Source: Candidatus Poribacteria bacterium
Lineage (GTDB): Bacteria > Poribacteria > DTPJ01 > WJIO01
Length of the DNA stretch: 13,280 nt
NCBI GenBank assembly: GCA_014730235.1
Contig: WJIO01000241.1
Location: 1 to 13,280 of the forward strand
Reading direction: 5' to 3'
The notes under the pieces are model-generated. The model was not told the DNA's origin, made no database searches, and saw nothing but the letters and a program-made list of their open reading frames with translations. Made by a program: the position numbers and the translations under genes. Numbering within the stretch: position 1 is the first letter of the stretch; each line of letters opens with the position of its first letter. Of the stretch, positions 137 to 13,280 are shown one piece after another.

Positions 137-991
137 TCATATATTTATCAATGGAACATTTAGCTCTGTTTCAATTGAATTATAGAAATTGATTGATCTA
201 CCGAAAGAAAATGGATTAAATATTAGTTTTGTTTCTCCAAACGGGACGATGTCAACAGTTCCTATATGAATTCGAAGATCCAATTTATTGTAAGGTCTAT
301 TCCAATAAAAATTGCCAGAGATATTAGCTATAGAAACACCATACTTAAGGGATGATATACCCCCTGTTTCAAATTTAAACCTTCCTGTTTCCCTAAGCGT
401 TGCTGAAATAAATCTTGCATAAGGTGTAAATTCAAATGTTTCAAAACCAAACCCAAGTAAGTTGGTTTCCTTTTGGTATGTAAATCCTAACCTATAAATA
501 AAGGTAATAGTTCCTCCATTAAAGGTTGATGGATCATTCCAAACAGAACGGGCATTATAATACCACACTTTCCTCATAGCTGTACTAACCTCGCTGATGA
601 TATAATCTCGATCATTTGGATCCGGATTCAGGTTTGGATTGATATAAACTTGCTCCCAGCGGTATTTCAGACTTCGATTGTAATTACCGGTTTGAAGATT
701 CCATTTAATTTCTTGATAACCATCAGTAAATCCATATTGAGACAACGCATTAGCCATCATCATATCATATTCAAAATCATTCCTGGGACTATGAAGCGTC
801 CCATAACGTGGCCAGCTTATTCCGCCACCAGTACTGCCAGCTGGTCCTATATCATCCTGAATGCCACTTGCGGTTTGTGCCAGTATTCCGATTTTATACC
901 CGCTAGGGTCTGCGTATTTCAGGGGGTTGTTTAGGGCATATCGATAGTAGTAAGAACTGAAAATCACTAAACTCCAATTTTTATAAACCAT
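137..991 (-). CDS. Displaced Rhs C-terminal toxin tip (tip 5)
   Basis: This is a fragment of an Rhs protein, not a whole one. About 20 residues after the chosen ATG (989-991) it enters the end of the Rhs core (YRYALNNPLKYADPSGY), followed by about 115 residues almost identical to tip 4, up to KVWYY. After that the sequence is unique: about 140 residues rich in alternating polar and hydrophobic residues, suggesting beta strands, with no cysteine-rich or obvious nuclease motif. The outer-membrane-like look recalls the polymorphic toxin type 23 group, but I cannot confirm that. The ATG overlaps the end of the upstream lipoprotein gene by 11 bases, so it could be translated by coupling. A TTG at 997 is an alternative start. 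No open frame for an immunity gene follows in the 136 bases to the window edge. The Rhs N-terminal shell and export regions are absent, so on its own the product is probably not delivered; a silent donor cassette is the likeliest role. Confidence 0.75.
   Translation of the reverse strand: MVYKNWSLVIFSSYYYRYALNNPLKYADPSGYKIGILAQTASGIQDDIGPAGSTGGGISWPRYGTLHSPRNDFEYDMMMANALSQYGFTDGYQEIKWNLQTGNYNRSLKYRWEQVYINPNLNPDPNDRDYIISEVSTAMRKVWYYNARSVWNDPSTFNGGTITFIYRLGFTYQKETNLLGFGFETFEFTPYARFISATLRETGRFKFETGGISSLKYGVSIANISGNFYWNRPYNKLDLRIHIGTVDIVPFGETKLIFNPFSFGRSINFYNSIETELNVPLINI
557..953 (-). repeat. 397-bp direct repeat, copy in tip 5
   Basis: It matches 1725-2121 base for base apart from scattered substitutions, roughly 93-95% identical by eye, with a constant offset of 1168 and no indels. 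It codes for the end of the Rhs core plus the linker before the toxin domain. Identity stops abruptly at both edges, as expected of a recombination block. Confidence 0.9.
914..937 (-). repeat. Rhs-core scar, copy in tip 5
   Basis: A 24-base identical core, coding for ALNNPLKY at the end of the Rhs core, occurs four times in the window: 914-937, 2082-2105, 10569-10592 and 12004-12027. It marks where each displaced tip begins and is the obvious homology for tip exchange. Confidence 0.9.
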
Positions 992-1262
992 TACCAATCC
1001 GGATAACTACACTATCCTTCCTCGAAACAAAAACTCGAAAATGATCAGAATACCCTGATGGTGATAGGTAGAGCAACTCGTATTCATCAATATTAAACGA
1101 GTGTATAATAGTTTTTTCTGGATCTCCCATAATCCGTTTAACCTCGTCAAGTGTCATACCTACTTCAACCTTATTTATGTTTTCAGCATTACTTTTAGAA
1201 ACACCTGAAGAACAGCTGATAGTAAGTAAAAGTACCGTATATACAATGGCAAAGGTTTTCAT
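981..1262 (-). CDS. Putative immunity lipoprotein with SmpA/OmlA-like fold (immunity 4)
   Basis: The 93-residue product starts with a lipoprotein signal peptide: MK, then a hydrophobic stretch, then a lipobox-like TISC with Cys17 as the lipidated residue. The mature part holds VEVGMTLDEVKRIMGDPEK, the hallmark opening of the SmpA/OmlA (BamE-type) fold, followed by strands ending in RVFVSRKDSVV. The ATG follows the TAA of the tip 4 toxin with no gap, and its own end overlaps the next tip by 11 bases, so all three are probably co-transcribed. Position and size point to the immunity protein of tip 4, held at the periplasmic face of a membrane. A housekeeping BamE role is unlikely in this setting. 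The immunity role is inferred from gene order. Confidence 0.7.
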   Translation of the reverse strand: MKTFAIVYTVLLLTISCSSGVSKSNAENINKVEVGMTLDEVKRIMGDPEKTIIHSFNIDEYELLYLSPSGYSDHFRVFVSRKDSVVIRIGNGL

Positions 1263-2282
1263 TTATCTATAAATTAGCCAATTATGAAACGATGTTGACC
1301 AATCTTTTGTGAATTTACCTGTATAGAAATAGTAAGTTCCAAATGAGGAACCTACCTTATTTGAATAAATATCTTGTCTGTCAAATGCACTACCTCTTAT
1401 ATCCTTGCCAAAATATGGTCCAAACCACTGAATCAACTCTATCCCAAGACCAAGCACGTTTCCCATTACTGGATTTCCCTGATAAACCATTGTTCCTCCA
1501 AAACCAACGACCATTACATGTCTCATGTCCATAATTCTTCCATCATTAGGATTTATTACCATTCTCATTGTAGGACCACCTGGCAATCCGTCTTTTCTTG
1601 GTTCCTGATTTATAATTTGAAAATATGATCTATCTCGATTCTCAATCCAAAAGTCTTGCACACTATAGACAGGCAATCCATGAGTTTTATTATATGGATT
1701 GCTATTTTGAGAAGTTAATGTTTCATAATACCATACTTTCCTCATAGCTGTACTAACCTCGCTGATGATGTAGTCTCGATCACTTGGGTCCGGATTCAGG
1801 TTTGGATTGATATAAACCTGCTCCCAGCGGTATTTCAGACTTCTATTGTACCTTCCTGATTGAAGATTCCATTTAACTTCCTGATAACCATCAGTAAATC
1901 CATATTGAGATAACGTATTAGCCATCATTATATCATATTCAAAATCGTTCCTGGGACTATGAAGCGTCCCATAGCGAGGCCAGCTAATTCCACCACCAGC
2001 ACTGCCAATTGGTCCGATGTCATCTTGAATGCCACTTGCGGTTTGTGCCAGTATTCCGATTTTATACCCGCTAGGGTCTGCGTATTTCAGGGGGTTGTTT
2101 AGGGCATATCGATAGCAGTAAACCCCCTTTGAGGTCGAGCTCGCGCAATAAATAACCCCATTTTCTTTGTACACACGGGTAAGTACAGGATCCTTTGTCT
2201 TCTGTTCGGCGACTGGATCCTGCATTACAAAATAACTGTACTGCTGAGCAACCGAGGCTGTATAATGGGACTCGCTAAACAT
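1263..2282 (-). CDS. Rhs C-terminal toxin tip (tip 4)
   Basis: The 339-residue frame has an unusual N-terminus. Its first 55 or so residues are unlike an Rhs core, then YCYRYALNNPLKYADPSGY enters the core end and linker shared with tip 5. The unique tip after KVWYY holds a segment with DGRIMDMRHVMVVG, an internal ELIQW and SAFDRQDIYSN near the C-terminus. These clustered Asp, His, Glu and Asn residues look like a conserved active-site set of an Rhs tip family, but I cannot name the enzyme. The start (ATG 2280-2282) lies where the non-coding left end of the island begins, so the first residues may be a junction product. The lipoprotein partner suggests action in the cell envelope. It lacks the Rhs shell and any delivery domain. 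Confidence 0.75.
   Translation of the reverse strand: MFSESHYTASVAQQYSYFVMQDPVAEQKTKDPVLTRVYKENGVIYCASSTSKGVYCYRYALNNPLKYADPSGYKIGILAQTASGIQDDIGPIGSAGGGISWPRYGTLHSPRNDFEYDIMMANTLSQYGFTDGYQEVKWNLQSGRYNRSLKYRWEQVYINPNLNPDPSDRDYIISEVSTAMRKVWYYETLTSQNSNPYNKTHGLPVYSVQDFWIENRDRSYFQIINQEPRKDGLPGGPTMRMVINPNDGRIMDMRHVMVVGFGGTMVYQGNPVMGNVLGLGIELIQWFGPYFGKDIRGSAFDRQDIYSNKVGSSFGTYYFYTGKFTKDWSTSFHNWLIYR
1725..2121 (-). repeat. 397-bp direct repeat, copy in tip 4
   Basis: Partner of 557-953. The copies are ungapped, differ mainly at synonymous-looking positions, and diverge completely after the codons for KVWYY and before those for YRYALNN. Confidence 0.9.
2082..2105 (-). repeat. Rhs-core scar, copy in tip 4
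   Basis: Identical 24-base core described at 914-937. Here it is preceded by an open frame with no stop, unlike the scars of tips 2 and 3. Confidence 0.9.
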
Positions 2283-2455: not shown

Positions 2456-2588
2456 CTGCTTAACATAATGAGACATTATAGTCGCAACACGCAGAACTAA
2501 TGTTGGCTGTTCATTTGCAGGCGGTTCCGGATCTACAGTACCTGGTTCTCCCGGTGATTGGCCTATAATACGGCATTATGTTAAGCAG
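2456..2588. repeat. 133-bp element A bounded by inverted dif-like sites
   Basis: The outer arms CTGCTTAACATAATG (2456-2470) and CATTATGTTAAGCAG (2574-2588) are a perfect 15-base inverted repeat. After a 4-base unpaired step, ATTATAG (2475-2481) pairs with CTATAAT (2563-2569). Each end reads as a recombinase core site: TGCGACTATAA, 7 bases, TTATGTTAAGC on the minus strand at 2458-2486, and TTGGCCTATAA, 7 bases, TTATGTTAAGC on the plus strand at 2558-2586. The second arm resembles the XerD arm of dif. GCTTAAC and GTTAAGC also fit the RYYYAAC/GTTRRRY ends of integron attC sites, and 133 bp is within the usual attC range. A conserved inner segment at 2530-2551 is shared, inverted, with element B. 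Confidence 0.65.
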
Positions 2589-2674
2589 CCCCTTTGCCTG
2601 CCCGCATACCGTTATCACCGGGGTTTCATCAACCAAGCCAGGGAACTACGGGTTTGGGCGTGTTGGCGCGGGCG

Positions 2675-2807
2675 CTATTTAACATAATTGCCTTATAGGA
2701 CCCGGCTTGTATTTCAGGATGGAGAACTGGTAAGGCGTAGATCGTCGTTTTTGATTTGACCCGGTCAGTACCACCGGGCTACTATAAGATGCTGTTATGT
2801 TAAATAG
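2675..2807. repeat. 133-bp element B bounded by inverted dif-like sites
   Basis: It has the same length and design as element A. Outer arms CTATTTAACATAA (2675-2687) and TTATGTTAAATAG (2795-2807) are perfectly inverted; inner arms CTTATAG (2692-2698) and CTATAAG (2782-2788) pair across a short internal loop. The right end reads GGCTACTATAA, 7 bases, TTATGTTAAAT (2777-2805), and the left end the same on the minus strand with a 5-base spacer (2677-2703). TTATGTTAAAT equals the XerD arm of Escherichia coli dif, as I recall it. The inner segment 2721-2743 aligns with the reverse complement of 2530-2551, so A and B are diverged copies. No target-site duplication flanks either. Confidence 0.65.
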
Positions 2808-2937: not shown

Positions 2938-3234
2938 CTAGTAGGGCAGTTTTTCAGGATCCTGCCGGTTGTCCCAGAAGACAAGTAACTGCAATTCCTT
3001 CTTCCGTGGCCTTACCCGATAATACAAGGTATTGTACTTGGTGACAAATCCCTTTCTGACGTTCCGCTTTTTCCTGGATTCCTCGAACATCTCAGGGTTT
3101 TGCTTGAGTTGTTCCAGCAGACAATCAACCTCGCTAATGAAGTTTTGGGTTTCTTTTTCAGTCCAGGCTTTTTCCAGATAATCAAGGATTTTTAAATATG
3201 TATGCCTTGCTGTGGGTGTCCAGAGGATCTCCAT
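2938..3234 (-). CDS. ParE/RelE-family toxin of a type II toxin-antitoxin module
   Basis: The 98-residue product has the compact ParE/RelE layout: an N-terminal strand (MEILWTPTARHTYLKIL), two helices with EKETQNFISEVDCLLEQLKQNP, then strands RKGFVTKYNTLYYRV and ELQLLVFWDNRQDPEKL ending in the family's typical NRQDP-like tail. Such toxins either inhibit gyrase or cut mRNA on the ribosome; which applies here cannot be told. Its ATG overlaps the antitoxin's TAA by one base (TAATG), the usual antitoxin-first coupling. It sits at the 3' end of the recombinase gene block and probably stabilises the island by post-segregational killing. Confidence 0.85.
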   Translation of the reverse strand: MEILWTPTARHTYLKILDYLEKAWTEKETQNFISEVDCLLEQLKQNPEMFEESRKKRNVRKGFVTKYNTLYYRVRPRKKELQLLVFWDNRQDPEKLPY

Positions 3235-3485
3235 TAGTCCGGGTTGTATTTGTCCCGGACTTTTTTCATCACTTCCTCATGGGGTATCAGTTCTCCTCGA
3301 TCCGCCTCAGCAAGGCCTTTTTCGACAGCCGCCTTTTCAGCCTCACTGATCTCATCCCACCAGTCAGATCCCTTCTCTTTTTTAAATACCGCTTCCACCT
3401 TAGCCAGCACAGAAGGCTTTTCGGTATTTAGGATCATTTGGACCAACTCCAGTTTTTTCGCCTGTAGATTCATGATTGCCTTCAT
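3234..3485 (-). CDS. Antitoxin paired with the ParE/RelE toxin
   Basis: The product is 83 residues, or 79 from the second ATG at 3473. It is highly charged and helical, with the segment EKAAVEKGLAEADRGELIPHEEVMKKVRDKY at the C-terminus. This is the pattern of the 'addiction module component' antitoxins that sit in front of ParE/RelE toxins: a regular helix, then a short toxin-wrapping tail containing the G-x-x-x-P-H-E-E-V motif. No clear DNA-binding domain is visible in the first 40 residues. A Bacteroidota-type -7 box lies 9 bases before the first ATG, so the pair has its own promoter apart from the recombinases 40 bases upstream. Confidence 0.8.
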   Translation of the reverse strand: MKAIMNLQAKKLELVQMILNTEKPSVLAKVEAVFKKEKGSDWWDEISEAEKAAVEKGLAEADRGELIPHEEVMKKVRDKYNPD

Positions 3486-3526: not shown

Positions 3527-4417
3527 CTATCTCAAAGGATGGAACAGCTCCAGCTGGCGGGTAAGGTCCGTAAGATCCTGCAGGCGGTAGCTTTCCGTTG
3601 TACGGATGCTTTTATGACCTGCCATGTACTGCACCTGGCGGATGTTGTATCGTTTCAGCCAGCCCATGATCACACTGGAGCGTATCTGCCGGCTACCCGT
3701 AACCTGGGGATCGATCCTTTTTACCCCACGCATAATCCTTGCGACCATTTCACCGGGTTTTTTAACCATAAACAGGTAAGCCCCGGGATCCTGCTTCTGC
3801 ATCTGGATCAACTGCGGCCTGGTTTTGTCCAGATAGGTTTTCATAGCCAGGACCTGCATGGTGTGCATATCAAGGATCCGGGCATTGCTTTTCCTGCCGG
3901 ATGGCACATAGAGTGTCCCTTTTTCAAGGTTCAGGTGCGCAGGCTCCAGGCGGGATAGCTGCCCGCTGTCCAGGCCCTGGAATATCATCAGCCCCAGTAC
4001 CACCGTATCGCGCTGATGGATCAGCCTGGCACGGCTCGAGCGGTGGTGCCATAAGGGAAGGTTTGCAAAGGCCTGGTAGATTTTCTCCAACTGCTGCTGT
4101 GACAGCACCTGCGGCAATGCCCTTCGGCCCGCCTGACGAAGCCGGATCCGCCGGAAAACATTATGGGTGGCACAACCGATCTCTACCAGGTAATCGAAGT
4201 AAATCCTTATGGAGTTTACCATCCCTGCGATGCTCTGATGCTTAATGCCTCGCTTGCGCTGGTGATCTATAAATTCCAGGACCTGGTTGTAGGTGATACC
4301 CTGCGGCTCGATGCTCTGGAGAGTGCACCATGATAAAAGCTGGCTTATATGGCTGTCCTGGACCTTTATGCTGCTCTCGGAGTATCCGCCGGCCTGGCGG
4401 TAACGCTTAAAACTCAT
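3527..4417 (-). CDS. Tyrosine recombinase with degenerate active site
   Basis: The 296-residue product keeps the two-domain layout: an N-terminal core-binding region (about 1-95) and a catalytic region (about 110-285). The motif that carries the first catalytic Arg reads QGLDSGQLSRL, with Asp150 in place of Arg. Lys176 is present in GRKSNAR. Box II reads RQIRSS, so Arg243 replaces the His while Arg246 remains. His268 in AGHKS and Tyr277 in TTESYR are intact. It may be an accessory subunit that binds DNA and supplies only some chemistry, acting with the intact recombinase upstream. I chose the ATG at 4415-4417, which overlaps the upstream stop (TAA) by 11 bases and gives a normal N-terminus; a start at 4459 would add 14 unlikely residues. 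A related Bacteroidota family may have lost the box II His generally, so the Asp is the more telling change. Confidence 0.85.
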   Translation of the reverse strand: MSFKRYRQAGGYSESSIKVQDSHISQLLSWCTLQSIEPQGITYNQVLEFIDHQRKRGIKHQSIAGMVNSIRIYFDYLVEIGCATHNVFRRIRLRQAGRRALPQVLSQQQLEKIYQAFANLPLWHHRSSRARLIHQRDTVVLGLMIFQGLDSGQLSRLEPAHLNLEKGTLYVPSGRKSNARILDMHTMQVLAMKTYLDKTRPQLIQMQKQDPGAYLFMVKKPGEMVARIMRGVKRIDPQVTGSRQIRSSVIMGWLKRYNIRQVQYMAGHKSIRTTESYRLQDLTDLTRQLELFHPLR

Positions 4418-5363
4418 TGTCCAGGTGAGTGTAGATCTGCGTGCTTTCCAGGGACTCATGGCCCAGGAACTGCTGGATCATCTCGATCTGCATGCCCGAC
4501 TGCATCAGGTGGGTGGCAATGGAGTGGCGAAGCGTGTGCAGCGAGGGGCGCTTTTCCTGCAAACTGACACTGCCGCTTCGTTTGACAAGTTTGTGGAGAC
4601 TATGCGTCAGGGCCTGGTCGCTGCACCGCCCGCCGAACTGGTTTACAAAAAAGCCTTCAGTTGAAAAAGAAGATGTCGATACCAAAAAGGGTCTTCCCAC
4701 CAGCAGGTACTCAGTGATATGTTCCCGGCTCCTTAAAGATACCGGCACGTAGCGCTCCTTGCTGCCCTTACCCTTGCGAACAAGGATCAGGCCTCGCTGG
4801 GTAAGCACATCCGATACATCCAACCCTGTTCCCTCGCTTCTTCTCAGTCCGCATCCGTAATAGATTCCCAGCATGGCCCTGTCACGCTGTGAGATGGCCC
4901 GTTGCAGAGCCCGGGGCTCAGACCGGGTAAAATGCCCCTGGTAATATGTGGCATCATACAGGGACGTGATATCCCCCCTGGTGAGGATCCCACGGGGATG
5001 GTAGTTTTCTTCAAGATAGGACAGGTTGTCCAGTGTAAAGGACCCGGCGGTGCCGCTCTGGCGAAGGTATTCAAAGAACTTATTGACCGAGCTTACTCCC
5101 ACGTTGATCGTGGCACTGCTCAGGCCCGCTCCATGCAACTTGTTCTGCCGGCGTTTCAGGTAACGTACAAAGCGGCCCGCCTTATACGCTGTTATCTTTT
5201 CAACTGAAGTAATCCCTGAGCGCTCCAGGTACAACAAAAACTCCCGGATGTTCCTTTTTCTTGTCTGGACCGTCGAAGGGCTGTACCCGAGGGCTTGCAG
5301 CCAGCGTAAAAAATCCTTTTCAAGAGTAATAAACTGTTTGCTGTGGATCTGCTCGGTAATCAT
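4407..5363 (-). CDS. XerC/D-like tyrosine recombinase (intact active site)
   Basis: The 318-residue product matches the phage-integrase family in length and order. The SAM-like core-binding domain is about 10-115, and the catalytic domain has Arg174 (CGLRRSEG), Lys199 (KGKGSKER), His276 and Arg279 (HTLRHS), His302 (LGHES) and the nucleophile Tyr311 (IYTHLD). It would cut and rejoin DNA at paired core sites; the dif-like sites at 2456-2807 are candidates. A variable loop at 228-237 contains SSFSTE, encoded by a 19-base sequence that recurs exactly in the primase gene. The gene overlaps the degenerate recombinase by 11 bases, so the two are translationally coupled and probably made in similar amounts. 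The ATG is preceded by a T-rich leader without a Shine-Dalgarno sequence, as usual in Bacteroidota. Confidence 0.92.
   Translation of the reverse strand: MITEQIHSKQFITLEKDFLRWLQALGYSPSTVQTRKRNIREFLLYLERSGITSVEKITAYKAGRFVRYLKRRQNKLHGAGLSSATINVGVSSVNKFFEYLRQSGTAGSFTLDNLSYLEENYHPRGILTRGDITSLYDATYYQGHFTRSEPRALQRAISQRDRAMLGIYYGCGLRRSEGTGLDVSDVLTQRGLILVRKGKGSKERYVPVSLRSREHITEYLLVGRPFLVSTSSFSTEGFFVNQFGGRCSDQALTHSLHKLVKRSGSVSLQEKRPSLHTLRHSIATHLMQSGMQIEMIQQFLGHESLESTQIYTHLDNEF
4656..4674. repeat. 19-bp repeat in the recombinase gene
   Basis: TTCAGTTGAAAAAGAAGAT is identical to 7206-7224 inside the primase gene. In both it is read on the minus strand in the same frame, as SSFSTE, in a loop or linker. 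It includes the TTCAnnTGAA palindrome. Confidence 0.8.
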
Positions 5364-5513: not shown

Positions 5514-5554
5514 TGTGAAGCTCATGTGAACCCCTGTGAAGCTATGTGAAGCTC
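5514..5554. repeat. Iteron-like repeats, four tandem copies
   Basis: TGTGAAGCTC (5514), TGTGAACCCC (5525), TGTGAAGCTA (5535) and TGTGAAGCTC (5545) follow each other every 10-11 bases, i.e. once per helical turn on the same face. The last copy runs into the primase stop codon. Such spacing beside a replication protein gene is typical of iterons bound by an initiator, making this a candidate origin or control site. Confidence 0.65.
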
Positions 5555-8300
5555 ATGATACGCAGGAGGTTAGAGTCTTTGTTTTTAGCTTTTCCACCAG
5601 GCTGTCCAGCATATTGACCCCGTTTTTTAACATTTCATAGTCGTCCCAGACGCAGACCTCATACTCGTTGCCCGTTTTATTGCTGCGGCTTCTACACTTG
5701 ATAAACCCTCTTCCTTCCAGATCATCCAGAAAGCGTTTCAGCTGCATGGGATGAAGGCGAAAATGTTTTCGGATATCTTTGGCATAAAACACCGGGTTGC
5801 CCTCCTGGTTTTCATATAAAAGGGCTTTGAGGTTTTCAAAAAAGCCGCGGGTCTTACCGCCAAGCTCATCGGATTTTCTTAAAAGGCTTTCTTTGCTCAA
5901 AAAATTTGCCCACTCCACATCTTCCAGGGTGGTAGTAACGTAGGTATTGCCTTCCCTGTCCGTGGTTTCTTCCCTTTGTCTCTGGTTCCACAGCGTAATG
6001 GCTTTTATTAGGGTCAGGTAGTGGTTCTTTGTCCGCATCTTTTTAAAAACATGCGGCGGCAGTTCCAACGCAGGTGCAAAAGGTATGATCACCTCCATGG
6101 GGCGGATCAAGAGCTGGCAGGCTTTTAACATGCGGATCGCATCCTCATGATGCTGCATGTTGACAAGCCCTGCCGCCACCCTTCCCTGGTACTCCAATAC
6201 CTCGGCCTCATGACGGGGGTTCTCCTGGATCTGGATCAAAAAACTGCGGTTGGCATTGTCCTCATAGATCTTATCGCGCGTGGTGGCTCCGGCAACACAT
6301 ACCGGTCCTTCAACATGAAGGTACACCTGCTGGCTTTCGCCCGTGCGGCTGTTGGTGCGCGTAGAGAAGCGGGAGATCTCCTGGTTGCTCATAAGCTCGC
6401 GAAGCGGCAGCAAGGCATTGTAGGCTCCGTCCAGGTCCTCCTGAAGCAGGATCTTATGGGTTAAAAAATCTTTCGGGGTGTAATAAAGCGTGTTTTCGCT
6501 AAGCGAGGTGGTAACATGGATATGCTGGCGGGGTACGCACCCGGCAACCCCCTGCAGAAGATAGGTCTTGCCGGATCCGCTGCTGCCCATCACGATGGCA
6601 TGCAGAGGATTTTTAAAAAAGCGGGTCAGAAAGATAAAAAACAACAGTGCAGCATTGTCCTGCTGGCCGATCAGTCCCAGGTTGCCAAAAAGGGCATGGG
6701 TACGGCGGGTAAGGTCCGCAGAGCTCATAAACCGGGAGGCCCTTTGCATCTGACCCGAGGGAAAACTGTCCTTGCCCTTTTCGGCCTTCAGCTGCTCACA
6801 TCGTCGTTTTTCCTCCCGCTTTTGCTGCCGGTAACCCTCCAAAGCGCGCGTAAGGCCCGCTATGGCATTTCCAACTACACTGCTGCTGATCTCCAGCTTT
6901 TCCGAGGCCTGCTTTATGAGGCGGTCACTCTGGCTATGGCTGTAAAGATCCGCCGTATCACGGAAGCTGGCATACTCGTTGCCCCGAAGATGGATATGTA
7001 GCGTCGCACGAAGGCGGCTTACCGTATGAGTCTCGATTCCGCCCCAAAGGGTGATCTGCAGGCGGTCAGTCTCATAGCGCATATAATCCGCGCTGACCTT
7101 AAGCTTTGGAGTAGGTTCAGTGGAGATTTCCGGTGCTGGCACAGAAGGCTTGTCCTCTTTTTTATTTTCAATTGAGTTTTCGTTTTTTATTTCCGATGAT
7201 TCCGTTTCAGTTGAAAAAGAAGATTCCGGTTCCAGATGGTAGGTTCTGCGGTTTTCCAAAAGGTGAGTGAAGATCTCAGGGCTATGCAGCTGAAGCAGGC
7301 TGTTGACATCTTCCGCTCTGGGAGTATCCACCACACTGACTTTTATATCCTTGTTGGTTATAAAAAAATGCGCTGAGGTGCGTTTTATAGCCTGGCGGCC
7401 GGCAGCATCCCCATCAAAAAACAGGATTATCTCTTTAAGATCCTTCAGCTCTGCGATCGCTGTTCGGTGTTCTGCGGTAAAACCATTCGTACCGTACAAG
7501 GCCAGTATCCCGTATTGCTTTGGTATCTCCGGCAATTGCTCAAGGGTAGCTGCATCAATAATGGCTTCTGTAATAATCAGTCTTGAGACCCCCGGATCCG
7601 GATAGCCGGGATACAGCCCCCGCTGATCACCCTCCAGGTAATGGTGCTCCTGCTTTGTGGTATGACGGCCGTACAGGCTGACAACCTGGCCCGAAGGGTC
7701 CAGCAAAGGGAACACAAGGCATCCATTAAACCGGGTGTAGTAATTCCCCTCCCTCCCAAACTTATCCGGCTTGATCAGCCCGACCTGAAGTAGTGCCTGC
7801 TTCTGGTCCTTTGTGATTCCTTTGCGTTTATGAAGGGTGCCCGCATCGTAACCTACCGAGAGGTTTTTGTAATCCAACGATCGGGAGTCCAGATAATCGG
7901 TGGCCTGTTTAGGTCTGGTGGCCAGGCTGCGGACAAAATGAGTGAAAGATTTCGTGAGGATCTCTGTTCGTTGTTCAGGAGTTGTGGTAGAGTTGGTGGG
8001 AAGGAGTTTCACCCTATGGGGTGCAGGCTCTACGTGCCCGGCCAGATTCTTGGCCTTCAAAATAGCCTCATGTTTGGTGATCCCCTCCATCCGCATAATA
8101 AAATCCACCTGGTCGCCGCTGCCGGCCTCGCAGTTACTCGAAAAACAGGTCCAGGTACCGGTCTCAGGGTAAACCTGCATGCTCGGGGTCTTGTCATCAT
8201 GAAAAGGGCAGTGAAGGCGGTGGTTGCGGTCGCTCTGAAGGTGGTAGTGCTTCAGAACCGTGTTGATGGGAAGGTGTTGTTTGATTTCTGTTAACTCCAT
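5553..8300 (-). CDS. CHC2 zinc-finger/TOPRIM primase-type protein with P-loop ATPase domain
   Basis: The 915-residue product reads as a mobile-element replication protein. Residues 31-57 form a CHC2-type zinc finger (Cys31, His34, Cys52, Cys57; CPFHDDKTPS is the DnaG signature). A TOPRIM domain follows, with Glu245 in ITEAIIDA and Asp296/Asp298 in FFDGDAAG. Residues 350-400 are a Ser/Glu/Lys-rich linker holding SSFSTE, the 19-base repeat. A P-loop ATPase comes next, with Walker A GSSGSGKT (572-579) and a likely Walker B in KILLQEDLDG (616-624), then a winged-helix-like region (about 820-890). Primer synthesis plus unwinding or loading is the likely role, but a catalytic primase core between zinc finger and TOPRIM is only weakly visible. 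It is divergent from the XRE gene and its start region carries operator copies, so the repressor probably controls it. Iteron-like repeats at its 3' end fit a role in replication. Confidence 0.88.
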   Translation of the reverse strand: MELTEIKQHLPINTVLKHYHLQSDRNHRLHCPFHDDKTPSMQVYPETGTWTCFSSNCEAGSGDQVDFIMRMEGITKHEAILKAKNLAGHVEPAPHRVKLLPTNSTTTPEQRTEILTKSFTHFVRSLATRPKQATDYLDSRSLDYKNLSVGYDAGTLHKRKGITKDQKQALLQVGLIKPDKFGREGNYYTRFNGCLVFPLLDPSGQVVSLYGRHTTKQEHHYLEGDQRGLYPGYPDPGVSRLIITEAIIDAATLEQLPEIPKQYGILALYGTNGFTAEHRTAIAELKDLKEIILFFDGDAAGRQAIKRTSAHFFITNKDIKVSVVDTPRAEDVNSLLQLHSPEIFTHLLENRRTYHLEPESSFSTETESSEIKNENSIENKKEDKPSVPAPEISTEPTPKLKVSADYMRYETDRLQITLWGGIETHTVSRLRATLHIHLRGNEYASFRDTADLYSHSQSDRLIKQASEKLEISSSVVGNAIAGLTRALEGYRQQKREEKRRCEQLKAEKGKDSFPSGQMQRASRFMSSADLTRRTHALFGNLGLIGQQDNAALLFFIFLTRFFKNPLHAIVMGSSGSGKTYLLQGVAGCVPRQHIHVTTSLSENTLYYTPKDFLTHKILLQEDLDGAYNALLPLRELMSNQEISRFSTRTNSRTGESQQVYLHVEGPVCVAGATTRDKIYEDNANRSFLIQIQENPRHEAEVLEYQGRVAAGLVNMQHHEDAIRMLKACQLLIRPMEVIIPFAPALELPPHVFKKMRTKNHYLTLIKAITLWNQRQREETTDREGNTYVTTTLEDVEWANFLSKESLLRKSDELGGKTRGFFENLKALLYENQEGNPVFYAKDIRKHFRLHPMQLKRFLDDLEGRGFIKCRSRSNKTGNEYEVCVWDDYEMLKNGVNMLDSLVEKLKTKTLTSCVS
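7206..7224. repeat. 19-bp repeat in the primase gene
   Basis: Exact copy of 4656-4674, here in the codons of the low-complexity linker (residues 360-365). Confidence 0.8.
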
Positions 8301-8412: not shown

Positions 8413-8422
8413 CTCTATTGTT

Positions 8423-8435
8423 GAACTATCAGACA
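8423..8435 (+). promoter_or_regulatory. Operator-like site O3
   Basis: GAACTATCAGACA, identical to O1. It lies in the leader just after the expected start of the XRE transcript, suggesting autoregulation. Confidence 0.65.
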
Positions 8436-8450
8436 TTTTTTAGGCAAAAT

Positions 8451-8786
8451 ATGAACACAGGCAACATTATTACCAAGCTAAGAAGAGAGAAAGGATGGTC
8501 TCAGACTGATCTCTCAAAACAATGCGGAGTATCCCGCGAGATGGTCGGTAAATACGAACGTAACGAAGCCGTCCCTTCTATCGAAGCGGCAAAAAAAATT
8601 GCAGATACGTTCGGTGTGTCTCTGGATTACCTGGTGGGAGAAGGTATCAATGCCCATTTTGATAAAAAAACATTACAGAGGATACAAGACCTGGAACTGC
8701 TCGAAGAAGAGAAAAAAAAGACTCTCTTTGATTTGATGGATACATATATCCGTGATGCTAAAACAAGGCAGGCATATTCGGCCTGA
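8451..8786 (+). CDS. XRE-family repressor
   Basis: The 111-residue product has a classical Cro/CI-type helix-turn-helix over residues 5-60: IITKLRREKGWSQTDLSKQC, then VSREMVGKYERNEAVPS, closing with FGVSLDYLVGEG. The C-terminal 45 residues are helical and charged (LELLEEEKKKTLFDLMDTYI), a probable dimerisation segment. I chose the ATG at 8451 because the residues from an upstream start at 8418 would cover operator O3 and sit at the expected transcription start. It probably represses both the leftward replication gene and its own operon through the GAAnTATCAGACA sites, much as phage and conjugative-element repressors do. It is the first gene of a three-gene operon. Confidence 0.88.
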   Translation: MNTGNIITKLRREKGWSQTDLSKQCGVSREMVGKYERNEAVPSIEAAKKIADTFGVSLDYLVGEGINAHFDKKTLQRIQDLELLEEEKKKTLFDLMDTYIRDAKTRQAYSA

Positions 8787-8792
8787 CAATCC

Positions 8793-9038
8793 ATGCAGAA
8801 ATTGAAGTTCTCAAATTACTTCCTGCATACCAGGCAACGGCCCGACAGAAAGGATATTAAGATGGAATGGATTGAACAGGTGTACCGGTTCCCCGAACAT
8901 CAGGAAATTCAGACCGACGGAAGAAAAAGAATGTGGGGGTACATTAAAGAAGCTGACAAGTATTTACGCGTCGTGGTATTGGAAGACCATCAAACGATAC
9001 ACAACGCTTTCTTTGACAGGGATTACAAAAATGACTGA
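8793..9038 (+). CDS. Small protein of unknown function, partner of DUF2283
   Basis: The 81-residue product has an N-terminal SNYFLHTRQRPDRKDIKMEW helix-like part and a C-terminal strand-rich part, GYIKEADKYLRVVVLED then HNAFFDRDYK. I recall similar short proteins, with RPDR, EWI and HNAFFDR motifs, placed directly before DUF2283 genes in other bacteria, so the longer start at 8793 (6 bases after the XRE stop) is preferred to the ATG at 8862. Conserved Arg, His and Asp residues in a small beta-rich protein hint at a toxin-like or RNA-binding role, but this is speculation. Its stop overlaps the DUF2283 start by 8 bases. Confidence 0.7.
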   Translation: MQKLKFSNYFLHTRQRPDRKDIKMEWIEQVYRFPEHQEIQTDGRKRMWGYIKEADKYLRVVVLEDHQTIHNAFFDRDYKND

Positions 9039-9246
9039 TATGAATATTACTTACTTCAAAGATACTGATACACTGCTGGTTAATTTCAACAACAATGAAA
9101 TTGCCCATACCAGAGATCTGAATGAAAACGTTCTGGTGGAACTGGATAAAAATGGTAACGTAGTCAGCATGACCATTGAACATGCACAACAACAGACAGA
9201 GATTCAAAGCTTCTCTTTTAACCAGGTAGAAAATAAAGCGGTATAG
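9031..9246 (+). CDS. DUF2283 family protein
   Basis: The 71-residue product fits DUF2283 throughout: MNITYFKDTDTLLVNFNN, then IAHTRDLNENVLVELDKNGN, then VVSMTIEHA and the tail FSFNQV. The family is a small beta-rich fold of unknown function, often encoded next to another small protein, as here. That pairing and overlap are reminiscent of toxin-antitoxin operons, but no activity is established. ATG 9031 overlaps the previous gene; ATG 9040 is equally possible and gives the more usual N-terminus. Last gene of the rightward operon. Confidence 0.85.
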   Translation: MTDMNITYFKDTDTLLVNFNNNEIAHTRDLNENVLVELDKNGNVVSMTIEHAQQQTEIQSFSFNQVENKAV

Positions 9247-9321: not shown

Positions 9322-9702
9322 TCAATCTTCTAAATGACTATATGTATTAAATTTCCTTCTTGATCCATCAACCTTAATGATATATACTTCTAGAGAATTC
9401 TCAACCTTAATTATGCTATCCCCTATTTGACAATAATCAAAAAGTCCGCTATCATCTGTTTTCCAGCCTGTTAAAACAGTATCTGAATCATGGCTGATTA
9501 TTAGAGCCTCGTTCATGTGGTTTTCTTCATCAATGTATTTATCATGGATGCTACCTCTAAAGCTTTCATTTAGCCACCATTGTTTGAATTGATTCGTTCT
9601 GGATTGTTGATCATGAATTGCTTTGAAGACAGCAACAATAATTATTAGGATATATAATGGAATAAAGTATTTTTTTGATGAAGGCCAGACGCGGAATTTC
9701 AT
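9322..9702 (-). CDS. Putative immunity protein, membrane-anchored (immunity 3)
   Basis: The 126-residue product has a short basic N-terminus (MKFRVWPSSKKY) and one hydrophobic segment (about residues 12-28), then about 95 polar residues. This predicts an N-in single-pass protein with a periplasmic domain. It starts two bases after the stop of tip 3, the pattern of toxin-immunity pairs. No family is recognised. The anchor implies that the toxin acts outside the cytoplasm. Confidence 0.65.
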   Translation of the reverse strand: MKFRVWPSSKKYFIPLYILIIIVAVFKAIHDQQSRTNQFKQWWLNESFRGSIHDKYIDEENHMNEALIISHDSDTVLTGWKTDDSGLFDYCQIGDSIIKVENSLEVYIIKVDGSRRKFNTYSHLED

Positions 9703-9704
9703 GG

Positions 9705-10538
9705 CTATTTTCTAAAAAATGGTGTAATATATGTACGTGTATCCCAATTTGTATAGCCAATGTCCATACTCCATTTTGTTGGTAAGCTAAGACCAAATAT
9801 GTTATAGTCAGTTTCTATATTATAACCGTAAAATGGAGAGTCAATTTCCACTCCTACCAGAACACCTAAAGAAAACGATGTGCCAACTCCATCAAGATCT
9901 TCAATAAAAAATTGCCTATCCAAGCGTCTCCTGATTGTATATGATATCTCTGGGGCTATTGACAAGGAAAAACCACCTTCATCTGGTCTTGGAGTTTTGT
10001 ATGTTTGATATAAACCAATACCTGTTAGGCTCTTATCTGCAATCAAGCCGACATCATATCCTACACCCCAACCTGGAAATCGCCCGAATGCAGGTATTGC
10101 AAATTCTAATGAGACACCTGCTAATATGGGATCCCATATATCAGGATTTGATCGATTGGGGGCATGATTATTGCCTTGGATATGATCGAACGGATTAACT
10201 GCAGAATTTGTTCCCGGCACAAAAAATTCACCCGTCAAACGGTCATACTCAAAGTAATGCCCCCGATTACCAAATCTGTTCTGGTAGTCAAAGTAGCCCA
10301 GGTTTCTTCGCTTTGAATAACTGGTAAACTGTGAGATAAATCCATAAATCGCGTTGGTGGCTTCTTCAGAACCATAGCCAGTGCTTCCCCAGGAATCATG
10401 ACGATTCACAAAGCCTATCCCCTCGTTCAGCGCATCCCGGCCGGAAGCAAACGGTTCAAAACCACCACCTGAGGTCCATGTACCGCCAAAGGGGCCACTT
10501 CTTTCAAAAAGTGTCGAGGTAAAATTCCTTACTGCCAA
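9705..10538 (-). CDS. Displaced Rhs C-terminal toxin tip (tip 3)
   Basis: The open frame reaches from 10610 but has no ATG except near its C-terminus; the marked start is a TTG. A TAA (10611-10613) stands in frame just before the Rhs scar (SVNYTYALNNPLKYTDPSGY), so this is a cassette cut from an Rhs gene and likely silent unless recombined. After a Gly-rich part comes a linker shared with tip 1 (RHDSWGSTGYGSEEATNAIY to VNPFDH), then a unique C-terminal domain. That domain is about 150 residues of alternating Gly/aromatic strands ending in TYITPFFRK, with the look of a membrane beta-barrel and perhaps related to polymorphic toxin type 23. Function uncertain; the membrane-anchored neighbour suggests an envelope target. 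Confidence 0.7.
   Translation of the reverse strand: MAVRNFTSTLFERSGPFGGTWTSGGGFEPFASGRDALNEGIGFVNRHDSWGSTGYGSEEATNAIYGFISQFTSYSKRRNLGYFDYQNRFGNRGHYFEYDRLTGEFFVPGTNSAVNPFDHIQGNNHAPNRSNPDIWDPILAGVSLEFAIPAFGRFPGWGVGYDVGLIADKSLTGIGLYQTYKTPRPDEGGFSLSIAPEISYTIRRRLDRQFFIEDLDGVGTSFSLGVLVGVEIDSPFYGYNIETDYNIFGLSLPTKWSMDIGYTNWDTRTYITPFFRK
10183..10405 (-). repeat. 223-bp repeat, copy in tip 3
   Basis: Matches 13058-13280 with a constant offset of 2875 and no indels, and continues beyond the window edge in the other copy. It encodes the linker before the toxin domain and ends abruptly after the codons for VNPF. Confidence 0.85.
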
Positions 10539-10568
10539 TGATATTAAAAGATATCCTGAGGGGTCGGT

Positions 10569-10592
10569 GTATTTCAGGGGGTTGTTTAGGGC
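10569..10592 (-). repeat. Rhs-core scar, copy in tip 3
   Basis: Identical 24-base core described at 914-937. An in-frame TAA lies 18 bases upstream on the coding strand. Confidence 0.9.
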
Positions 10593-10621
10593 ATAGGTGT
10601 AATTAACAGATTAAATTCTCG

Positions 10622-11110
10622 TTAATCATTGAATGAATATATCAAGATTTTTTGATTTGTTCTATCAATTATGGTAATTCTATAACTATCATTATTGCTG
10701 AATTTTTTAAACCGATAGTACCCAGAAGTTTCAGTTTTGGTAGAATCAAATAGGACATTATCAGACTTATTTAAAGATTTAACATCCATGTAAATAAAAT
10801 ACTTCTCAGGTAAAGTCTCAGGAAGTTTCTCTGATATTGGTAGCTCATTAAAATCTTCAAGCTTGTTTTTTCGAATTAGTTCTGAATACTGATCTTGGGT
10901 GAGTTTTAAAATAATTTCTGTGGAACCCTCACCAGTGAATGAATAAAAGGAACTATTCTTTTCGAAATTAACTCTATTTGAAACCTTAATACCACCAATC
11001 AAATTAACAACTTTAGTTGGGCTATAAGGAGGTAAATATCTGTACAGAACTATGTAAATCAATGCAAGGGTTACAATTACATATATGAGGATTAATACTT
11101 TTTTCTTCAT
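10622..11110 (-). CDS. Putative immunity protein, membrane-anchored (immunity 2)
   Basis: The 162-residue product begins MKKK followed by a strong transmembrane segment (about 4-24), then a polar, Lys- and Ser-rich domain of about 135 residues expected in the periplasm. This topology matches the colicin M immunity protein Cmi, an N-terminally anchored periplasmic protein, which agrees with the colicin M-like motif in tip 2. It starts 11 bases after that gene. I see no sequence motif tying it to Cmi, so the parallel is topological only. Confidence 0.65.
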   Translation of the reverse strand: MKKKVLILIYVIVTLALIYIVLYRYLPPYSPTKVVNLIGGIKVSNRVNFEKNSSFYSFTGEGSTEIILKLTQDQYSELIRKNKLEDFNELPISEKLPETLPEKYFIYMDVKSLNKSDNVLFDSTKTETSGYYRFKKFSNNDSYRITIIDRTNQKILIYSFND

Positions 11111-11121
11111 CCAGATCTTTA

Positions 11122-11949
11122 TTAAGGATATCTAATATTGAACGGTCTATCTGTCAAGTTAAACCAACTCGCCATATCAATTAATTCGGTTTTCAATTGT
11201 GCATCAAAGAAACTATTCCATCGAATAGGATAAGGATTAAAATCATATACATCAAAAAAACCTATAGGATTTCCTGACAGGTCATAATACATTCTTGCAG
11301 TTCCGAATACACGTGAGTATTCAGAATCATAAAAACTTACATAACGTCGAATTGCTTCTTGATTATTATATATCACCCTGGTGCCCATACCTAAACCATT
11401 CGCATGTTGGGCAATATCATTGAATCGATTTGTAGAAAGTGTGACATCACCACCACCGGTCCAATAATTCGCGAACATTAGTTGGCTAAATTCTGAGCCT
11501 GCTCGCTTCTGTATTTGTCTTCCCAGCCAATTTAGCTCACTGAGATTTGGAATTTGATTGAATGGATCAACTTCCAAAATACCAACAGTAATGAAACCAT
11601 AGTTGCCATTGCCAATCCATTTACCATTGCTATTGAGGAATGCGGTCTCATACATGACTCTAATGCCTGTACCCAATCCTGAATATGAACCATTCCTTGC
11701 GGAGGAATACCTGCCAGAAGCACCGAAAAAATACGTTGAAGAGAAGTCTGAGGCATTCATTGTGCCCCCGGTATATCTATTGATGTAACTGCCAGATCCC
11801 CGGTCATAAGACCACCCCTGGGAAGGATGACTCGATATCAGGCCTCCGATTACAAAAGCCTGATGCCTCATTTTCATCGATTCCCACCAGTCAATAGATG
11901 GGCTGGATCCACCACCACCCCATCTGTTCAGATCCGGATAGTCATCCAT
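11122..11949 (-). CDS. Displaced Rhs C-terminal toxin tip with colicin M-like motif (tip 2)
   Basis: From the ATG the product is 275 residues. The frame runs back another 29 codons through the Rhs scar (YRYALNNPLKYTDPSGY) to a TGA at 12037-12039; other scars have a sense codon there. Near the C-terminus DVYDFNPYPIR (233-243) reproduces the spacing of the essential residues of colicin M as I recall them (D, Y, D, then H-R), with Asp233, Tyr235, Asp236 and Arg243 in place but Ile242 where His is expected. Colicin M-type enzymes cut lipid II in the periplasm and so block wall synthesis; the membrane-anchored partner fits that. The missing His could mean altered chemistry, an inactive copy or a related family. 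Without the Rhs core it is probably a stored cassette, unless started at the internal ATG. Confidence 0.65.
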   Translation of the reverse strand: MDDYPDLNRWGGGGSSPSIDWWESMKMRHQAFVIGGLISSHPSQGWSYDRGSGSYINRYTGGTMNASDFSSTYFFGASGRYSSARNGSYSGLGTGIRVMYETAFLNSNGKWIGNGNYGFITVGILEVDPFNQIPNLSELNWLGRQIQKRAGSEFSQLMFANYWTGGGDVTLSTNRFNDIAQHANGLGMGTRVIYNNQEAIRRYVSFYDSEYSRVFGTARMYYDLSGNPIGFFDVYDFNPYPIRWNSFFDAQLKTELIDMASWFNLTDRPFNIRYP

Positions 11950-12003
11950 AAGGCCGCTTGGAGTTTGTGCCAGTATTCCGATTTTATATCCTGAGGGGTC
12001 GGT

Positions 12004-12027
12004 GTATTTCAGGGGGTTGTTTAGGGC
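12004..12027 (-). repeat. Rhs-core scar, copy in tip 2
   Basis: Identical 24-base core described at 914-937. The bases just upstream read TGA TAT CGA in frame where tip 4 has TGC TAT CGA, so one base change or junction makes the stop. About 100 bases to the right, up to the end of immunity 1, hold no gene. Confidence 0.9.
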
Positions 12028-12147
12028 GTATCGATATCAGTAAAGCCAAAATCAAACAACAACTGGCTTCATAGATCGAATTCCTGAGCTTGATAAATAT
12101 TAACATATCCCAGTCGTGCTTCTCGCTATACGGCTCCTGATTAAAAT

Positions 12148-12543
12148 TTATTCAGAAAAATTTATCGAAGTAATAATAATCATTAGCACAAAAGTGCAAA
12201 TAACGTAAAGCACTGTCAATATACTGCTTAGAAGTTTTTTCCTTCTGTTCTCACTATTATATTTTTTAATTATTTCTCTGTATTTTTTTTTATACATCAA
12301 AATCAAATAACTGATAATAATAATCCCTGCGTTATATCCAAATACAGATAACTTATTACTTAACAAACCATGAATCTGATATTTTCGCCAAATCAAGATA
12401 TTAATTGTAGCAACATTAAATATTAATAACAAGCAAAACGCTATAAAAGCTAAATATTCAGGCATTCTATGTCCGTCAGGCGTAAAGATTTTCTCTGTTG
12501 CTTCAAAGAATCGTAATAACCGGTAGTATAAATAATATATCAT
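12148..12543 (-). CDS. Putative immunity protein, integral membrane (immunity 1)
   Basis: The 131-residue product has three hydrophobic segments at about 29-52, 66-84 and 104-127, separated by Lys/Arg-rich loops, so it should span the inner membrane three times. It starts 9 bases after tip 1. Multi-pass immunity proteins usually protect against pore-forming toxins, such as the channel-forming colicins, which agrees with the Gly-rich hydrophobic end of tip 1. The family is not recognised. Confidence 0.65.
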   Translation of the reverse strand: MIYYLYYRLLRFFEATEKIFTPDGHRMPEYLAFIAFCLLLIFNVATINILIWRKYQIHGLLSNKLSVFGYNAGIIIISYLILMYKKKYREIIKKYNSENRRKKLLSSILTVLYVICTFVLMIIITSINFSE

Positions 12544-12552
12544 TAATTTAGA

Positions 12553-13280
12553 CTATTTTCCACCAAAATACCATGGGTTCTGATTTACTCCACCTACAAC
12601 ATTATTCATATACTGTTGATATTGCCACTCGAATACTGTTTGCCACCCCCCGGGAACAAAGGTATCAACACCAAAATAAAAACTTGAAGCAAATGCTCCC
12701 GAAAATCCGGCAAATCCTAGCACAGTAAATCCAGTATTTGTCCAAAATTTACCAGCAGACATAGTTGGATTTGGTCCACTTGTCTGAATATAATCATGCC
12801 CAATGCTCATCGCTGCAAATAAACCACCACCAATCCTGACTCCCTTTGTGACTTTCCCAAGTTTTAAGAACTCATCAGTATAATCTAAACCTAATCCAAG
12901 TTTATTACTTCTGTGTTGTAGAAATTCAACATTGGAACGTATAAAACCAAGTTTTTCTAGCGACATCGTCACGTTGAATCCGGCTACCCATAAACCTGCT
13001 GAGATTGGATCTATGGATTCGCCTTCTGGATTGCTATTTGATGATGGATTCATCATATGTGCAAAGGGATTAACAATTGTATTTGTCCCTGGCACAAAAA
13101 ATTCACCCGTCAACCGGTCATACTCAAAGTAATGCCCCTGATTTCCAAATCTGTTCCGGTAGTCAAAGTAGCCCAGGTTTCTTCGCTTTGAATAACTGGT
13201 AAACTGAGAGATAAATCCATAAATCGCATTTGTGGCTTCTTCAGAACCATAGCCAGTGCTTCCCCAGGAATCATGACGAT
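12553..13280 (-). CDS. Rhs C-terminal toxin tip, possibly pore-forming (tip 1, 5' end outside window)
   Basis: The frame is open from the right edge (first full codon 13276-13278) to the TAG at 12553, about 241 residues, so the start lies outside. The first 70 residues are the linker shared with tip 3, ending VNPFAH. The unique part includes hydrophobic, Gly/Ala-rich stretches such as IGGGLFAAMSIG and TGFTVLGFAGFSGAFASSFY, able to form a membrane hairpin, which with a three-span immunity partner suggests a pore former. It could be the end of the full-length Rhs protein or another displaced tip; the window cannot tell. Confidence 0.7.
   Translation of the reverse strand, partial: RHDSWGSTGYGSEEATNAIYGFISQFTSYSKRRNLGYFDYRNRFGNQGHYFEYDRLTGEFFVPGTNTIVNPFAHMMNPSSNSNPEGESIDPISAGLWVAGFNVTMSLEKLGFIRSNVEFLQHRSNKLGLGLDYTDEFLKLGKVTKGVRIGGGLFAAMSIGHDYIQTSGPNPTMSAGKFWTNTGFTVLGFAGFSGAFASSFYFGVDTFVPGGWQTVFEWQYQQYMNNVVGGVNQNPWYFGGK
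13058..13280 (-). repeat. 223-bp repeat, copy in tip 1 (continues outside)
   Basis: Partner of 10183-10405, with only scattered substitutions. Confidence 0.85.

What the first reader, a model, noticed from the sequence alone, without database searches (positions are those of the whole stretch)
2456..2807. Two 133-bp elements ending in inverted dif-like sites, near a paired recombinase operon
All four ends read CTATAA, 5-7 bases, TTATGTTAA(G/A)(C/T); element B has TTATGTTAAAT, the XerD arm of dif, at both ends. The elements have equal length and a diverged inner segment in matching position. Two inverted core sites per element with unpaired central steps is the architecture of an integron attC, and GCTTAAC/GTTAAGC and ATTTAAC/GTTAAAT fit its R-box consensus. 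It also recalls pdif modules, which carry toxin-antitoxin pairs, and one such pair lies 130 bases away. They may be substrates of the recombinase pair encoded 0.7-2.6 kb away.
Basis: partly seen in the sequence, partly recalled or inferred. Interest (0 to 1): 0.85.

Follow-up and report, generated by a model that had tools for sequence, protein, structure and literature searches.

The report
Paired hairpin recombination sites beside toxin genes
Next to a two-recombinase mobile module in Bacteroidota, two DNA hairpins built like integron and phage insertion sites face each other, belong to a family found in dozens of genomes, and are probably where toxin and defence genes get swapped in and out.

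Summary
A (2456-2588) and B (2675-2807) are each 133 bp with inverted dif-like ends. They belong to an undescribed family: 44 elements in 39 of 81 loci carrying the same recombinase pair, against 0.3 expected. In 20 genomes 53 of 60 lie within 5 kb downstream of the pair's last gene. The first element points with that gene and the second against it; B and A are such a pair. The module (regulator, primase-helicase, Rec2, Rec1, cargo gene, hairpins) sits in RHS toxin-tip arrays. Rec1 has lost two catalytic residues in essentially every homologue; Rec2 is complete.

The strongest clue: the two spacers of one element are complementary except at the centre. In all 19 elements with 6/6 spacers, position 4 is mismatched while positions 1, 2, 5 and 6 pair. 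That imitates the unpaired central spacer of attC and the central region of CTX-phage attP. I favour folded single-strand recombination sites, but no reaction was shown.

They are not integron attC (R-box and integrase tests fail) nor pdif modules. The link to the pair is not exclusive: 14 of 19 Flavobacteriales genomes found by the hairpin model alone have none near Rec1.

The parts
2456..2588 (.). element A (second hairpin, h2; polarity opposite to Rec1); sites 2460-2481 (+) and 2563-2584 (-), spacers 7/7
2675..2807 (.). element B (first hairpin, h1; same polarity as Rec1); sites 2679-2698 (+) and 2782-2803 (-), spacers 5/7
2589..2674 (.). short non-coding segment between the two convergent hairpins (up to about 1 kb in relatives)
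   Evidence: sequence; relatives
3527..4459 (-). Rec1: Xer-like tyrosine recombinase lacking Arg I and the His of HxxR, Tyr kept
4407..5363 (-). Rec2: Xer-like tyrosine recombinase with complete catalytic set
5553..8300 (-). primase (CHC2/Toprim) with a C-terminal part carrying a Walker A motif (GSSGSGKT), first gene of the module operon
   Evidence: synteny
3234..3485 (-). antitoxin of the cargo slot (83% identical in L051, where Rec1 is only 34% identical)
2938..3234 (-). ParE-type toxin of the cargo slot
8418..8786 (+). HTH (Cro/CI) regulator, divergent from the operon
8872..9246 (+). DUF2283 protein near the left end of the module; homology to the sister copy L114 ends near 9325
1263..2282 (-). 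orphan RHS core fragment with toxin-like tip, directly beyond the hairpins
   Evidence: (weak Rhs_assc_core match), repeats D3, D4
9705..10538 (-). RHS-array tip on the other side of the module
   Evidence: repeats D2, D4

Best explanation
A and B are the convergent pair of recombination sites at the right end of a mobile module that lives in RHS toxin-tip arrays of Bacteroidota. Each element is two inverted dif-like sites that fold, on one DNA strand, into a single recombination site: an outer stem (TWACATAA arm), a conserved unpaired centre, an inner stem (TTATAG arm), and a variable loop. The module's Xer-derived pair probably binds the folded site. Complete Rec2 would cut and exchange one strand, and crippled Rec1 would hold the other arm. 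Replication, possibly helped by the encoded primase-helicase, would finish the reaction. This would capture, exchange or excise the cargo on one side and the toxin tip on the other. Shown: family, position, polarity, pairing, conserved central mismatch, loss of Rec1 residues, mosaic flanks. Inferred: binding, single-strand folding in vivo, strand exchange, role of the primase.
For: Positional linkage: 53 of 60 elements in 20 genomes lie 54-4440 bp downstream of Rec1 (median 832). Polarity: in that set 34 elements share Rec1's strand (from 54 bp) and 19 oppose it (592 bp or further out); where two occur, the nearer is same-strand and the farther opposite. Pairing: 90.6% of cells paired, covariation score 0.233 against 0.083 shuffled and at most 0.068 slid. 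Centre: spacers of one element are 74% identical against 48% shuffled; in 19 of 19 elements with 6/6 spacers position 4 is mismatched while positions 1, 2, 5 and 6 match 19/19; 19 more have 7/5 internal loops; only L053 of 50 is fully paired. Rec1 lacks Arg I in all 70 homologues and the HxxR His in 69, Tyr kept in 69; Rec2 intact in 68 of 68. Mosaics: Flavivirga h1-h2 segments are shuffled against their flanks; C48 and u3 are near-identical inside, unrelated 4 bp beyond h2. Published parallels: full pairing of the attC centre cuts recombination 27-fold (PMC2727003); CTX attP1/attP2 are inverted, 90 bp apart, attP2 centre 5-7 bp (PMC4246890).
Against: No recombination product, circle or binding was observed. 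Most Flavobacteriales genomes found with the hairpin model alone (14 of 19) have no element near Rec1. Four genomes whose modules encode the pair (Chitinophaga barathri, alhagiae and hostae, Geofilum) gave no hairpin match. Mosaic breakpoints at a conserved hairpin are also expected from homologous recombination. The module's own ends (near 9325, and the RHS DYYPFG codons) are not at the hairpins.
Confidence: 0.55

Rival explanations
1. The sites act as ordinary double-stranded dif-like sites, two per element, with centres kept different so that the two sites of one element cannot recombine with each other; folding is incidental.
For: Each half is a plausible Xer-type core site (two arms, 5-7 bp centre); a single obligatory central mismatch would block recombination between the two, as between incompatible lox sites.
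Against: Inner stems often continue to pair beyond the core with bulged bases, the loop is kept at roughly 20-90 nt, and polarity is conserved; none of this is needed for duplex sites.
Confidence: 0.15
2. The host XerC/XerD, not the module's pair, use the elements (IMEX-like), explaining genomes that carry hairpins but only host Xer proteins.
For: The outer arm approaches the XerD arm ATTTAACATAA (49 of 82 right arms one mismatch away, 10 exact); genomes without the pair carry elements.
Against: Strong linkage to the pair where it exists; no E. coli-like dif stood out from the control in 14 genomes, so host dif arms could not be compared.
Confidence: 0.12
3. The hairpins are initiation or transfer sites (primase recognition site or oriT) of the module rather than recombination sites.
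For: A primase-helicase gene opens the operon; paired inverted hairpins are known at ssDNA initiation sites of some plasmids (own knowledge).
Against: Modules whose protein matches only about residues 405-908 of the window's primase-helicase, so probably without this primase half (for example L061, L062, L068), still carry the hairpins; the arms have recombinase-site geometry.
Confidence: 0.08
4. They are structured RNAs (terminators, antiterminators or regulatory leaders) between the operon and the toxin tip.
For: Position between genes; good covariation.
Against: No Rfam match; the stems hold nearly invariant AT-rich sequence (ACATAA, TATA), no U tract; the same element occurs in both orientations around one segment.
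Confidence: 0.06

Closest known systems
Integron attC sites
   Same: Hairpin of two inverted core-site pairs, unpaired central spacer, unpaired or bulged bases in the inner stem giving polarity, variable loop, similar length (62-145, median 99 here), downstream of a cargo gene.
   Different: R-box consensus not conserved; no integron integrase; two recombinases, one degenerate; two facing sites instead of a cassette array.
CTX-phage attP (IMEX, host XerC/XerD)
   Same: Two inverted dif-like sites about 90 bp apart folding into one site; arms like dif; 5-7 nt centre in one of the sites (PMC4246890).
   Different: Own recombinase pair encoded beside it; no phage genes; element occurs as a convergent pair in a chromosomal module.
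pdif modules
   Same: dif-like sites near a toxin-antitoxin pair.
   Different: The sites do not flank the toxin-antitoxin pair, and the inner arm is not a XerC arm.
RIT elements, strand-biased circularising elements (SE), Tn554-type transposons
   Same: Several tyrosine recombinases in one operon of a mobile element (own knowledge).
   Different: Two recombinases plus primase-helicase and hairpins; no shared gene set was tested here.

Membership tests
Integron / attC | Integron integrase (TIGR02249) nearby | tested here: not met
   Rec2 89.7 bits, cut-off 265; Rec1 no hit
Integron / attC | R boxes RYYYAAC / GTTRRRY | tested here: not met
   6/82 left arms, 26/82 right arms, 3 both
Integron / attC | Unpaired central spacer in the folded site | tested here: met
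   49 of 50 distinct elements; 19/19 mismatched at position 4 of the 6/6 type
Integron / attC | Extrahelical bases giving polarity | tested here: inconclusive
   Polarity is conserved and bulges or mismatches recur, but their positions vary
Integron / attC | Recombination of one folded strand | not testable with these tools
   needs an in vivo or in vitro assay
CTX-type attP / IMEX | Two inverted dif-like sites about 90 bp apart | tested here: met
CTX-type attP / IMEX | No own integrase; host XerC/XerD used at dif | tested here: not met
   the window module encodes its own pair; host-only genomes exist
pdif module | Gene(s) flanked by XerC/XerD sites | tested here: not met
   A and B both lie on one side of the toxin-antitoxin pair; no further exact site in the genome
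Known RNA family | Rfam match at the gathering score | tested here: not met

The most novel reading that the evidence does not exclude
An independent, integron-like system of Bacteroidota: a Xer-derived heterodimer with one catalytically crippled subunit recombines folded single-stranded hairpins to exchange RHS toxin tips and defence or toxin-antitoxin cargo.
Probability: 0.35. Interest if true: 0.93.

Novelty: new variant of a known kind. Interest (0 to 1): 0.8.

Why it matters
Recombination of folded single strands is established for integrons and a few Xer-dependent phages. A separate, widespread family in Bacteroidota, where complete integrons are rare, would show that this trick evolved more than once, and would give a mechanism for the exchange of RHS toxin tips, whose mechanism I did not find described. 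The conserved central mismatch makes a direct experimental prediction.

Tried and rejected
Scattered repeat or MITE reading: rejected for the module context by linkage and polarity, kept in part because of unlinked Flavobacteriales copies. The R-box match of A and B: real in these two, but not a family feature. Sites as the extreme ends of the mobile module: rejected, the near-identical Flavivirga modules u1/u2 end elsewhere. Search for an E. coli-like host dif to compare arms: no site stood out from the control. First pattern search in the window's own GTDB phylum: no hits (the pattern was strict). Plasmid and phage collections: only distant recombinases. Papers: searches of the open library found no description of this module or of these hairpins; subscription papers are not held.

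Full report
OBSERVATION. The window (contig C170 of a 5.53 Mb, 451-contig assembly) has exactly four matches of TTAACATAA-N5-8-TATAG, all in 2460-2803, and none elsewhere in the assembly. They form two 133-bp elements, A 2456-2588 and B 2675-2807. Both fold as single-stranded DNA far better than shuffles (z -3.7 to -4.3). A second contig of the same assembly (L114) holds a deleted sister module with two degenerate copies of the same kind.

SURROUNDINGS. On the minus strand the order is: RHS tip, module (HTH regulator divergent; primase with a Walker-A C-terminal part; Rec2; Rec1; antitoxin; ParE), B, A, RHS tip. The same order recurs in many of 79 loci found with Rec1, nearly all in Bacteroidota or in bins likely to hold Bacteroidota contigs. 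The slot between Rec1 and the first hairpin is variable: nothing, ParE-type toxin pairs, ORF6N, Fic or YhcG-type nuclease proteins. In L051 the toxin pair is 83-84% identical to the window's although Rec1 is 34% identical, and the nucleotide homology starts inside the 3' end of rec1.

THE FAMILY. A site-pair scan found 44 elements in 39 of 81 loci, against 0.3 in shuffled sequence. A covariance model (R1) found 60 distinct elements in 20 of 24 genomes chosen for having Rec1; 53 of the 60 lie within 5 kb downstream of a Rec1. The first hairpin has Rec1's polarity and the second the opposite polarity; in the window B is the first and A the second. Flavivirga aquatica has five modules in tandem, each with such a pair. 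Two of its modules are 99.55% identical over 5,581 bp with different sequence on both sides, so the module moves or is copied as a unit. Module right ends meet RHS genes at the codons for (D/N)YYPFG in several genomes.

STRUCTURE. Across 32 aligned elements 90.6% of pair cells are complementary, with nine pairs changed on both sides. This could come from folding or from two copies of one protein site. The spacers help to separate the two: in 50 distinct elements the two spacers are 74% identical against 48% when shuffled between elements, yet the centre is unpaired in 49. In all 19 elements with 6-nt spacers on both sides, positions 1, 2, 5 and 6 always match, position 3 in 15, and position 4 never. 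The mismatched bases differ between elements. In 19 more the spacers are 7 and 5 nt. The elements are related by descent, so these are not 19 independent trials, but the variety of mismatches argues against a single inherited one. In integron attC, pairing the central spacer lowers recombination 27-fold (PMC2727003). In CTX phage, attP1 and attP2 are inverted dif-like sites 90 bp apart, attP2 with a 5-7 bp centre (PMC4246890).

RECOMBINASES. Both proteins are Xer-like. Rec2 keeps the full catalytic set in 68 of 68 homologues. Rec1 lacks Arg I in 70 of 70 and the His of HxxR in 69 of 70, but keeps Arg II, His III and (69 of 70) the Tyr. A pair with one crippled member fits single-strand exchange, as on folded sites; this is inference.

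FLANKS. In Flavivirga the sequence left of h1 and the h1-h2 segment are shuffled relative to each other (C48 and u4 share the left, C48 and u3 the inside, u3 and u5 the left, u5 and u2 the inside); C48 and u3 are near-identical from h1 to h2 and unrelated 4 bp beyond h2. L035 and L079 share 85% identity over 1 kb of hairpin region although L079's Rec1 is only 30% identical to the window's against 57% for L035. This fits exchange at the hairpins but does not exclude homologous recombination.

LIMITS. A search of 296 Flavobacteriales genomes with the model alone found elements in 20. Of the 19 apart from Flavivirga, five have an element near Rec1; the others sit in a second context, downstream of varied genes (methyltransferase, metal efflux, nuclease-like) and about 1 kb before DUF6943, DUF6266 and DUF5675 genes, mostly in genomes where the Rec1 profile finds only matches of the strength expected of host XerC/XerD. 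Orphan attC clusters (CALIN) are a possible analogy (PMC9024848). Conversely, four genomes with the pair (Chitinophaga and Geofilum) gave no match. The assembly's own GTDB phylum is small and only one of its other searched genomes has a clear Rec1 homologue, so the contig may be Bacteroidota DNA misbinned or recently acquired.

VERDICT. A real, conserved and, in the papers searched, undescribed family of folded-site-like elements. Recombination at the site is the best reading (0.55); the single-strand mechanism and the acting recombinase remain to be shown.

Noticed in passing
L161-L179 (Flavobacteriales), for example L165 6998-7094: Second context of the hairpins: downstream of varied defence, efflux or other genes and about 1 kb before DUF6943 / DUF6266 / DUF5675 genes, usually without Rec1; an IntDOT-like integrase lies 12-27 kb upstream in about 7 of 10.
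   Followed up: partly
L035 6930-8060; L171 6750-8010: The hairpins sit in about 1 kb of non-coding DNA made of several adjacent long imperfect palindromes, shared by both contexts, followed by an outward promoter-like sequence and, in the RHS modules, a GTTCTTTGA motif.
   Followed up: partly
L114 745-2128: Sister module in the same assembly with an internal deletion from primase codon about 8 to Rec1 residue about 263; similar orphan Rec1 3' ends in L074 and L086.
   Followed up: partly
G153:C54 1194000-1240000 (L146-L148): Five modules in tandem in Flavivirga aquatica, most with diverged recombinases, separated by RHS tips.
   Followed up: yes
L103, L085, L077: Tandem copies of RHS tip plus module (7,670 bp exact in Chitinophaga alhagiae).
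   Followed up: partly
window 137-2282 and 9705-13280: Array of at least five RHS core fragments with different toxin-like tips, several followed by small putative immunity genes, all on the minus strand.
   Followed up: no
window 3611-3689 (3' part of rec1): About 80 nt of rec1 stay unusually conserved at the DNA level across homologues of about 28-38% identity, and homology between modules often starts there.
   Followed up: no
window contig: The assembly is placed in a small GTDB phylum, while all close relatives of the module are in Bacteroidota or mixed bins: possible misbinning.
   Followed up: partly
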